DNA of 64,000 nucleotides from Terriglobia bacterium. GTDB lineage: Bacteria; Acidobacteriota; Terriglobia; Bryobacterales; Bryobacteraceae. The stretch lies in NCBI GenBank assembly GCA_020073345.1, contig JAIQFI010000017.1:1-64000 (forward strand), given 5' to 3'. A model generated the notes under the pieces. It was given only the letters and a program-made list of their open reading frames with translations. It ran no database searches and was not told where the DNA came from. Shown piece by piece: positions 56,261 to 59,173 of the stretch; within the stretch, counting starts at the first letter, position 1, and every line of letters begins with the position of its first letter. A program made the translations under genes and the position numbers.

Positions 56261-56277
56261 TAGTGGTTCAGTTTGAA
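56261..56277 (+). repeat. Left terminal inverted repeat
   Basis: TAGTGGTTCAGTTTGAA. Confidence 0.85.
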
Positions 56278-56648
56278 ACAGGCTCGCACTTCACTTCAAG
56301 GTCGAGCTTCACAGACTTGGTAGTAACCTCAACGGGCTTGGATTGAATAAAAGATTCTAGTGTCCCCACTTGCCCATTCGGCCCTCGTACCCCACAGGGT
56401 TCTTTCGCGCTAAACGAGCCAGAGATCCCAACCGTGTATTTACCAGGCTGCACGTTCTGGAAAGTGTAACTGCCATCCTTTGCTGCCTGGGTCTTCGCCA
56501 GTTTTTGAGTTCCCTTTTCGAGAGTCACTTCAATATCCGACAGGGGCCGGGGATTAGATCCCGTTCGTAGCGCCTTGCCTGAGATCTCTTGGCAAAAGCA
56601 CTGTGATGCGACTAAAAAAAGTAGCGCGCCGGCAGTCTGATGGTTCAT
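56268..56648 (-). CDS. Secreted protein with carboxypeptidase-regulatory/Cna-B-like domain (passenger)
   Basis: MNHQTAGALLFLVASQCFCQEISGKALRTG...DGSYTFQNVQPGKYTVGISG; start trimmed to ATG 56648. Confidence 0.65.
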   Translation of the reverse strand: MNHQTAGALLFLVASQCFCQEISGKALRTGSNPRPLSDIEVTLEKGTQKLAKTQAAKDGSYTFQNVQPGKYTVGISGSFSAKEPCGVRGPNGQVGTLESFIQSKPVEVTTKSVKLDLEVKCEPVSN

Positions 56649-56662
56649 GCCATAATCGTACC

Positions 56663-56920
56663 ATGCCTTCCCGAGCAAGCACACCCAAGCGCCCGCGCGA
56701 TCCTAACCTGCTGGCGCGGTCGGTTGTGGAGGATTTGATCGGCGAGAAGATGGACGGTTCCCCGCTCTCGAAAGCGCCGGACACGCGGAACCCGGCAGCC
56801 GTGGCGCTCTCCAAGCTCGGGGCGTCCAAGGGTGGCATAGCCCGCGCCAAGGCACTATCAGACCGGAAGCGGAAGGCTATTGCTAAGAAGGCGGCGGCGG
56901 CTCGGTGGAAACGAGCCTAG
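56663..56920 (+). CDS. Small Lys/Ala-rich protein (passenger)
   Basis: LSKLGASKGGIARAKALSDRKRKAIAKKAAAARW; start at ATG 56663. Confidence 0.6.
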   Translation: MPSRASTPKRPRDPNLLARSVVEDLIGEKMDGSPLSKAPDTRNPAAVALSKLGASKGGIARAKALSDRKRKAIAKKAAAARWKRA

Positions 56921-56921
56921 C

Positions 56922-57260
56922 TTACTCTTTCGGCGGCCCTGGTATCTGACCAAACGCAGTTTCGTAGCCGCGTAGCTGTTCGATAAGGATGATAGTTAGC
57001 CGTTTCGCCAGCTGAGGAGACATGCGCACCTCGGCGAGTTCGTTGACTTGAGTTACCTGAACTTCTCCCTCTATCGAAACATCGGAGATCTCCCCCAGCT
57101 TTAATCGAAGATCCCACGTTGAGGTCTGGAGTTCGATGTCGTTGACGTAGAGTGAAATGAAGTTCGGAGACTTGGTGCGATCCCTACGCACTGTTTTTGG
57201 TACTAGTGGGGCATCAAGCACCCCAGCGTGTGTCGCTACTTCTCTATGTTTTCTTGCCAT
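56922..57260 (-). CDS. DUF3467-like protein
   Basis: FISLYVNDIELQTSTWDLRLKLGEI...VRMSPQLAKRLTIILIEQLRGYETAFGQIPGP resembles DUF3467; ATG 57260 lies 7 nt after XRE stop. Confidence 0.65.
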   Translation of the reverse strand: MARKHREVATHAGVLDAPLVPKTVRRDRTKSPNFISLYVNDIELQTSTWDLRLKLGEISDVSIEGEVQVTQVNELAEVRMSPQLAKRLTIILIEQLRGYETAFGQIPGPPKE

Positions 57261-57267
57261 AAAAGTT

Positions 57268-57882
57268 TTAACCTTGGTTGCCAGTTCTGGCTTCTGATAA
57301 GAGCGCTCCAAGCAGAAGCGCCGGAGGCAGGCTGTCTACTGGTTGGCTTGTAGACCGTTCCTCCCATCCGATTAGCCCCTGCTTTCCGTGTTCGGTTGGC
57401 CATGTTGCTGCACCAAGAATGCTGAAAGAACTAGAAGCTGGTACGTCCCACCAGGGACGGGGAGATTGGAACGGGTACTCACTAGGATGGATTGATATAT
57501 AGAGGCGACCTTTCAGCTTGACAATGTATCGCTCTAGCGTGTCGAGAGTGATATTCTCCAGTCCACCCTCCATCCTGGCTATAGCGGATTGACTGGTTCC
57601 CATGGCCTTGGCGAGCGAATCCTGTGATTCCTGACGATACCGCCTAAGGAACAACAGATTTTGGCTCACATGGAAGCGGACATCATTCGCTGCATGGTCT
57701 TTGAAGGCCTCGGTCTTGCGTAGATCCTTAAGAGTCGAGGTCAAACGGGCTGGCACCACTGGTGCCTCGTGCAATACCGTCGTAGTAGCTTCTGGCTCTA
57801 GCATGATCGCTGGGGTCTTCGAGCCTTTGGTCTTTATAGCAAGCATGGAGGTAGACGATCCTTTTGTGTTTTTCCCAGACAT
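57268..57882 (-). CDS. XRE-family HTH antitoxin-like protein with C-terminal extension
   Basis: LLFLRRYRQESQDSLAKAMGTSQSAIARMEGGLENITLDTLERYIVKLKGRLYISI; GGAGG SD upstream of ATG 57882. Confidence 0.85.
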   Translation of the reverse strand: MSGKNTKGSSTSMLAIKTKGSKTPAIMLEPEATTTVLHEAPVVPARLTSTLKDLRKTEAFKDHAANDVRFHVSQNLLFLRRYRQESQDSLAKAMGTSQSAIARMEGGLENITLDTLERYIVKLKGRLYISIHPSEYPFQSPRPWWDVPASSSFSILGAATWPTEHGKQGLIGWEERSTSQPVDSLPPALLLGALLSEARTGNQG

Positions 57883-58156
57883 AAAAATAGAGCCTCCAAA
57901 AACTTGGCTTACACTTCAATAGCCAAACAACATCATCTTTCGGCACAACCACTTTTTTCCCACGCCTTTCTCTTAGGCGTTGGGCTTCTGGCCAGCCCAT
58001 GTTCCGAACCATTCTCATCTTGTTCAGGGCTTGGGCCGAAACCGATCCGGGAGCCGCTAATGCATCCGAGAAGGGCCAAGACCATTGGCCGTCGCCGCCT
58101 TTAATGCAGATCTCATATGCTGTCCAGCCTGAGGTAAGGTCGCGCCCGGTCGCCAT
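57728..58156 (-). CDS. HigB/Gp49-like (RelE superfamily) toxin
   Basis: DDVVWLLKCKPSFWRLYFYVWEKHKRIVYLHACYKDQRLEDPSDHARARSYYDGI; AAGG SD upstream. Confidence 0.7.
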   Translation of the reverse strand: MATGRDLTSGWTAYEICIKGGDGQWSWPFSDALAAPGSVSAQALNKMRMVRNMGWPEAQRLRERRGKKVVVPKDDVVWLLKCKPSFWRLYFYVWEKHKRIVYLHACYKDQRLEDPSDHARARSYYDGIARGTSGASPFDLDS

Positions 58157-58281
58157 TGCATACCTTAAAGAGTATATTTCATGCTACCATAACGAAACAA
58201 GCCCCAAGAGTACCGATTCCGGTACCAGTATATACCTTATGAGGCTTGCCTTTACTTTGCCGTGCAAGCATAATTGTCAGT

Positions 58282-59166
58282 ATGAACCGGATGGATACAG
58301 CACGCCGCGCCGCAGTGATTCGGTGCCTGATCGAAAGCAATTCTATCAACTCCACGGTTCGCATGACCGGTGCGGCCAAGAACACGGTTCTAAAGCTTTT
58401 GGTCGAAATCGGCGCTTCGTGCTCGGCCTATATGGATCGCTCAATGCGGAATCTGACCTGTGAGCGGGTACAGGCAGATGAGGCATGGTCGTTCTGTTAC
58501 GACAAGGCCAAGAATGTGACCGAGGAGATCGCCCGCGAGAACGAAGGGGCGGGGGATGTTTGGACCTGGGTGGCGATTGACGCCGATACCAAGCTGATCC
58601 CGACGTGGATCGTCGGCAACCGGGACGGCCATACCGCGCGGGCGTTCGTTCACGATCTCAAGAGCCGACTTGCCAACCGCAGCCAGCTAACGACCGACGG
58701 CCTAAAGTTCTACTTCCATGCCGTTGCTGAGTACTTCGATGATGACGTGGACTACGCACAACTACACAAGATCTATGGTGGTTCCGTCGATGAAACCGGG
58801 ACCGCGAGAAAATACAGCCCGCCGGAATGCATCGGCTGTGAGAAGAAACCCAAGATCGGGAACCCCGACGAAAAACATATCTCGACCAGCTTCATCGAAC
58901 GCCAGAACTTGACCATGAGAATGTCCATGCGGCGCTTTACGCGGCTGACCAACGGTTTCCCTAAGAAGCTTGAGAATCAATTGTCTAGCGTGGCTTTGTA
59001 CATGATGTACTACAACTATGGCCGCAAGCACACGACGCTCGGAACGACGCCAGCGGTCAAGGCTGGGATCACGGATCACATCTGGAGCGTGGAGGAGATC
59101 GTAGGAGTCCTGGAGGCGAATGGACCGAAGGCAACTAGGCCAGCGCGGGCGGCAAGTTCAAACTGA
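58282..59166 (+). CDS. IS1-like DDE transposase
   Basis: MRNLTCERVQADEAWSFCYDKAKNV (D), LTTDGLKFYF (D), SFIERQNLTMRMSMRRFTRLTNGF (E). Confidence 0.92.
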   Translation: MNRMDTARRAAVIRCLIESNSINSTVRMTGAAKNTVLKLLVEIGASCSAYMDRSMRNLTCERVQADEAWSFCYDKAKNVTEEIARENEGAGDVWTWVAIDADTKLIPTWIVGNRDGHTARAFVHDLKSRLANRSQLTTDGLKFYFHAVAEYFDDDVDYAQLHKIYGGSVDETGTARKYSPPECIGCEKKPKIGNPDEKHISTSFIERQNLTMRMSMRRFTRLTNGFPKKLENQLSSVALYMMYYNYGRKHTTLGTTPAVKAGITDHIWSVEEIVGVLEANGPKATRPARAASSN

Positions 59167-59173
59167 ACCACTA
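59157..59173 (-). repeat. Right terminal inverted repeat
   Basis: TTCAAACTGAACCACTA, reverse complement of 56261-56277. Confidence 0.85.

What the first reader, a model, noticed from the sequence alone, without database searches (positions are those of the whole stretch)
56261..59173. 2.9-kb passenger-carrying IS1-like transposon bounded by perfect 17-bp inverted repeats
TAGTGGTTCAGTTTGAA at 56261 and TTCAAACTGAACCACTA at 59157 are exact inverted repeats enclosing a DDE transposase and five non-transposase ORFs: a secreted CarboxypepD_reg-like protein, a small Lys-rich protein, and DUF3467-like, XRE and HigB-like genes. The right IR abuts the transposase stop as in a simple IS, while the left IR lies ~2 kb away beyond the cargo. 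This looks like a 'transporter IS' that mobilises a toxin-antitoxin module as a single unit.
Basis: partly seen in the sequence, partly recalled or inferred. Interest (0 to 1): 0.85.

Follow-up and report, generated by a model that had tools for sequence, protein, structure and literature searches.

The report
IS1-like transposon carrying toxin-antitoxin cargo
The 2.9-kb stretch is a jumping gene of the IS1 kind that carries passenger genes (a probable toxin-antitoxin set), and it belongs to a large clade in which every copy delimited here carries interchangeable cargo and, in close relatives, always a second, uncharacterised small basic protein.

Summary
The 17-bp ends are exact; the family-wide end is 19 bp (GGTAGTGG...), and the window's left end reads GCTAGTGG, one mismatch. 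The passenger-carrying-IS reading is well supported. Around 110 related transposase copies, 69 units were delimited blindly by inverted repeats plus an 8-bp target duplication (shuffled control 2/330). They span 2.0-7.4 kb; none is a simple IS. Close relatives share only ends, transposase and one small gene; cargo differs and is enriched in XRE-type regulators, with many toxin-antitoxin, restriction and defence genes.

Two corrections. (1) The 'small Lys-rich protein' is not cargo but a second core gene, present in 54 of 54 units with transposase at least 50% identical to this one; it has no Pfam domain and about 8,000 homologs. (2) The window copy has no target duplication, a mutated left tip and a neighbouring remnant end, at a site where two related genomes hold other copies. 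It is old, decayed or chimeric; its movement as one unit is inferred from relatives.

Transporter IS elements of the IS1/IS1595 families are a known kind. New here are the constant small gene and the breadth of the always cargo-bearing clade. Function was not tested.

The parts
56259..56277 (+). Left terminal inverted repeat, GCTAGTGGTTCAGTTTGAA (family form GGTAGTGG...; second base mutated)
59157..59175 (-). Right terminal inverted repeat, TTCAAACTGAACCACTACC on the + strand; contains the transposase stop codon (59164-59166)
58282..59166 (+). IS1-like DDE transposase, 294 aa; D67, D140, E207 in the 295-residue numbering
56663..56920 (+). Small basic H1-like protein, 85 aa: second core gene of the transposon family, no Pfam domain
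57728..58156 (-). HigB/Gp49-like probable toxin, 142 aa (cargo)
57268..57882 (-). XRE-family HTH probable antitoxin, 204 aa as the longest ORF (cargo; true start may be internal)
56922..57311 (-). DUF3467 protein, third gene of the conserved toxin/antitoxin/DUF3467 trio (cargo)
56268..56684 (-). CarboxypepD_reg-like (prealbumin-fold) probable secreted protein; uses the TGA inside the left IR as stop codon (cargo)
56234..56252 (-). CTCAAACTGACCCGCCACC: decayed right end of another copy of the family (3 of 19 mismatches to consensus), 8 bp left of TAGTGG; no transposase similarity survives upstream
   Evidence: sequence; family consensus; negative profile search

Best explanation
The unit is a transporter-IS type transposon: an IS1-family-like DDE transposase acting on 19-bp GGTAGTG... 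ends that enclose passenger genes. Shown by comparison: relatives are whole units bounded by these ends with 8-bp target duplications; the shared backbone is left IR, small basic H1-like gene, transposase, right IR; the DNA between differs between close relatives. Inferred: the transposase pairs the two ends and inserts the whole 2-7 kb unit; the small basic protein, which in about half of the units is the first gene behind a promoter-like sequence just inside the left end, binds DNA and helps bring distant ends together or regulates the transposase; the toxin-antitoxin trio (HigB/Gp49-like, XRE, DUF3467) gives the unit a way to penalise its own loss. The window copy is probably an old insertion at a repeatedly used site and may no longer be mobile.
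For: 69 of 110 transposase copies delimited by IR plus 8-bp TSD, 66 with a perfect TSD, 44 with perfect TSD and perfect 16-bp IR; control 2/330. All at least 1,984 bp. Backbone-only DNA identity between close relatives with unrelated cargo, e.g. L061/L063/L067 82-86% over the H1 gene and transposase-right end only. Small basic gene in 61/73 units, 54/54 with transposase identity of at least 50%, and in most undelimited copies. Of 37 strong occurrences of the small gene in the order, 27 lie beside a listed transposase; 8 of the other 10 have a family-type left end or a transposase remnant. The toxin/antitoxin/DUF3467 trio recurs in another unit with strong Pfam hits (L161: Gp49 1e-15, HTH_3, DUF3467) and outside transposons. 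XRE HTH_3 in 19/150 cargo proteins versus at most 1/135 flanking proteins (p about 3e-5). All 53 aligned transposases match the NCBIfam IS1 model. Named non-acidobacterial units: Mesorhizobium loti CP050295, Acidiphilium NZ_CP041717, Hoeflea NZ_CP011481.
Against: The window copy has no TSD and a GG-to-GC change at its left tip; in IS26 changing terminal GG abolishes activity (PMC6807381), relevant by analogy only. The toxin has no strong profile hit of its own and no PDB relative by sequence. No function of the small basic protein is known. HigA and IrrE enrichments are weak individually (p 0.07 and 0.04). Longest-ORF gene calling, not a gene finder, was used for cargo. 41 of 110 copies could not be delimited.
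Confidence: 0.85

Rival explanations
1. The window segment is a chimera: the left end comes from one copy and the right end with transposase from another, both inserted at the same favoured site, with the DNA between lost or exchanged by recombination. It never moved as this exact unit.
For: No TSD; a decayed right end of another copy lies 8 bp to the left; the same locus in G180 and G185 holds other elements of the family with ends at nearly the same position, including an intact unit with TSD CCCTAACA placed directly beside an older right end.
Against: Both ends carry the same 17-bp variant (GGTTCAG rather than the commoner GGGTCAG), as in the closest relative L054; gene content and order are those of single units. 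Decay of an old TSD explains the lack equally well.
Confidence: 0.25
2. The small basic protein is itself part of a toxin-antitoxin or defence cargo (for example an antitoxin or silencer) rather than a transposition component.
For: It is small and basic and sits beside different cargo; a similar motif is fused to P63C-type cargo proteins (L075, L084).
Against: It is constant while cargo changes, present in 54/54 close units, found in Mesorhizobium, Acidiphilium and Hoeflea plasmid units, and often the first gene inside the left end.
Confidence: 0.2
3. The IR pair is coincidental or belongs to unrelated repeats; the passenger genes are ordinary chromosomal genes beside a simple IS.
For: No TSD in the window.
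Against: 0.01 matches expected; no simple IS among 69 delimited relatives; flanks in relatives lack these genes.
Confidence: 0.01

Closest known systems
Transporter IS (tIS) of the IS1/IS1595 families (Siguier et al. 2009, as cited in PMC8496243; definition in PMC9330008 and PMC3129680)
   Same: IS-type transposase and short IRs enclosing passenger genes unrelated to transposition.
   Different: Here every delimited member of the clade carries cargo, and a conserved small basic gene forms part of the backbone; that gene was not found described in the library searched, but the 2009 paper itself is not held.
IS1 family (ends GGnnnTG, 8-9 bp direct repeats, 740-1180 bp, as tabulated from ISfinder in PMC10425158)
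   Same: GGTAGTG ends fit GGnnnTG; 8-bp TSD in relatives; the NCBIfam IS1 model matches all 53 transposases.
   Different: Single transposase ORF; 2.0-7.4 kb; the window protein scores below the IS1 model cut-off (45.8 versus 100 bits). The single-ORF ISMhu11 subgroup is remembered as the nearest ISfinder group but could not be checked here.
Toxin-antitoxin-carrying Tn3-family transposons (PMC7157771)
   Same: Gp49 toxin with HTH antitoxin, toxin gene first, carried inside a transposon; modular exchange.
   Different: Different transposase superfamily, no resolvase, ends of 19 rather than about 38 bp.
Tn7-like transposons with defence cargo (PMC8649781)
   Same: Core genes constant, cargo enriched in toxin-antitoxin and defence genes.
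   Different: Single IS1-like transposase instead of the Tns proteins, no site-specific targeting shown, much smaller.

Membership tests
Transporter IS (tIS) | Passenger genes between the two IRs that serve one transposase | tested here: met
Transporter IS (tIS) | Moves as one unit, with target duplication around the whole unit | tested here: inconclusive
   Met in 69 relatives; no duplication around the window copy
IS1 family | Terminal GGnnnTG | tested here: inconclusive
   Right end GGTAGTG and relatives met; window left end GCTAGTG not
IS1 family | 8-9 bp direct repeats | tested here: inconclusive
   8 bp in relatives; absent in the window copy
IS1 family | Transposase matches the curated IS1 model above cut-off | tested here: not met
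   NF033558 E 6e-12, 45.8 bits, cut-off 100; called IS1-like for that reason
IS1 family | DDE catalytic triad in an RNase H fold | tested here: met
   D67 conserved in at least 90%, D140 and E207 invariant in 53 sequences; model pLDDT 90; Foldseek hits are DDE transposases and integrases, ISCth4 best
IS1595 family | Transposase best matches the IS1595 model | tested here: not met
   E 2e-4 for the window, 1 of 53 members at 1e-5; IS1 better
Type II toxin-antitoxin (HigBA/Gp49-HTH) | RelE/HigB-fold toxin beside an XRE antitoxin | tested here: inconclusive
   XRE at cut-off, toxin below cut-off in the window; clear in the analogous unit L161
Type II toxin-antitoxin (HigBA/Gp49-HTH) | Toxin inhibits growth and antitoxin neutralises it | not testable with these tools
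   needs an expression assay

The most novel reading that the evidence does not exclude
The small basic protein is a previously unrecognised transposition cofactor encoded by the element: a DNA-bending or bridging protein that lets an IS1-type transposase pair ends several kilobases apart, and so turned a simple IS lineage into an obligate cargo carrier.
Probability: 0.35. Interest if true: 0.75.

Novelty: new variant of a known kind. Interest (0 to 1): 0.55.

Why it matters
Simple IS elements are usually treated as cargo-free. Here a whole clade of IS1-like elements, spread over Acidobacteriota with members in a MAG labelled Chloroflexi and on alphaproteobacterial plasmids, is cargo-bearing without exception in the sample and carries toxin-antitoxin, restriction and defence genes. 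Its constant second gene has thousands of uncharacterised homologs, and this gives them a first context and a testable role.

Tried and rejected
Simple IS beside chromosomal genes: rejected. IS1595 membership: rejected. General rule that new units insert beside older ends: only 4 of 69 units have a nearby second end, 2 of them at 8-9 bp, so noted for this locus only. A transposase remnant upstream of the decayed right end: no similarity found. PDB relatives of the toxin by sequence, and of the small protein by sequence or fold: none. Empty site at the window's locus: none intact, because G180 and G185 hold other copies there. Literature for ISMhu11 and for the small protein: nothing in the held library.

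Full report
Observation. The two 17-bp sequences are exact inverted repeats and the only matches in the window at up to three mismatches, against 0.01 expected. Comparison with relatives shows that the terminus is 19 bp, GGTAGTGGTTCAGTTTGAA; the right end is perfect and the left end reads GCTAGTGG. The unit is 56259-59175 and occurs once in its 6.2-Mb genome. The transposase stop codon lies inside the right IR, and the leftmost cargo gene likewise takes its stop codon from the left IR.

Genes. The transposase (58282-59166) is an intact DDE protein. Its best family is IS1 (NCBIfam E 6e-12) but below the curated cut-off; all 53 aligned relatives match the same model. The AlphaFold model (pLDDT 90) has an RNase H-type fold, and the best solved match is the ISCth4 transposase. 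On the minus strand lie a HigB/Gp49-like gene, an XRE gene and a DUF3467 gene. The toxin match is weak alone (E 0.02), but the same three genes in the same order occur in G233 and G216 at about 45-55% identity with no family ends nearby, and in transposon unit L161 with strong hits to Gp49, HTH_3 and DUF3467. Toxin-first Gp49-HTH pairs are described for some Tn3 transposons (PMC7157771).

Relatives. The transposase was found in 56 of 258 genomes of the order, across the phylum, in a MAG labelled Chloroflexi and on alphaproteobacterial plasmids. A blind search for 16-bp inverted repeats beginning GG and flanked by an 8-bp duplication around 110 copies delimited 69 units; shuffled flanks gave 2 of 330. 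Sizes are 1,984 to 7,432 bp, median 3,136; 66 have a perfect duplication. None is a simple IS. In 22 the transposase abuts the right end and in 47 it lies further inside.

Backbone and cargo. Close relatives share DNA only at the ends, the small basic gene and the transposase; for example L061, L063 and L067 are 82-86% identical there and carry unrelated cargo. A few pairs (L055/L075, L072/L073) also share cargo. Among 150 cargo proteins Pfam finds HTH_3 in 19, IrrE in 8, P63C in 6, and one or two each of methyltransferase, HigB, PemK, PIN, TIR and Mrr; PADLOC gives 107 families against 25 for 135 flanking proteins. HTH_3 is at most 1 in the flanking set (p about 3e-5). Enrichment of individual toxin-antitoxin families is weaker.

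The small basic gene. A profile finds it in 61 of 73 units, 54 of 54 where the transposase is at least 50% identical to the window's. The profile was built partly from these units; 24 of the 61 were not in it. In 33 units it starts 56-93 bp from the left end, often behind a TTGAC...TACT promoter-like sequence. In the order, 27 of 37 strong occurrences are beside a listed transposase and 8 of the other 10 have a family left end or a transposase remnant. It is therefore treated as a core gene. The model is three helices with no PDB match. Its function is unknown; a DNA-binding or end-bridging role is inference.

The window copy. It has no target duplication and a mutated left tip. Eight bases to the left of TAGTGG is CTCAAACTGACCCGCCACC, a right end of another copy with 3 mismatches. 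The same locus in two relatives holds other copies: G185 an intact 2,180-bp unit with duplication CCCTAACA placed directly beside an older right end, and G180 fragments. An old insertion whose duplication has decayed, or a chimera of two copies, both fit; the first is preferred because both ends and the gene order match those of single units.

Comparison with what is known. IS elements with passenger genes (transporter IS) are known, including in the IS1 and IS1595 families (PMC8496243; PMC3129680; PMC9330008). IS1 ends and duplications (GGnnnTG, 8-9 bp) fit the relatives (PMC10425158). The element works like an IS1-family transporter IS; formal membership is left as 'IS1-like' because the window protein is below the model cut-off. 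What could not be found described is the constant second gene; the key 2009 paper and ISfinder were not available.

Noticed in passing
window 56234-56260; L077 8150-8200 and 10350-10380; L117 (reverse complement) about 5050-6850: Insertion hot spot: in three genomes of the genus, ends of different copies of this family sit at nearly the same position, 8-11 bp before a conserved CATAATAT.
   Followed up: partly
L251 5493-6448; L255 5884-7611: Shortened units (956 and 1,728 bp) with ends, target duplication and small basic gene but only a transposase remnant: probably non-autonomous derivatives.
   Followed up: partly
window 57728-57882: The probable toxin and antitoxin reading frames overlap by about 155 bp; an overlap also appears in L267 and L268. 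The antitoxin start codon may be further in.
   Followed up: no
L091 6871-9007 (own genome, contig C51 about 286870-289006): A second, distant (43% identity) element in the same genome: 2,137 bp with TSD CCTCCAGG, without the small basic gene.
   Followed up: partly
L075 8135-9130; L084 6552-7700: Cargo proteins (P63C type in L075) begin with the same GG.ARA..L motif as the small basic protein, as if fused to it.
   Followed up: no
window 53674-55740: FecR-like, glycine- and asparagine-rich chromosomal protein left of the element; similar DNA occurs throughout the genus.
   Followed up: no
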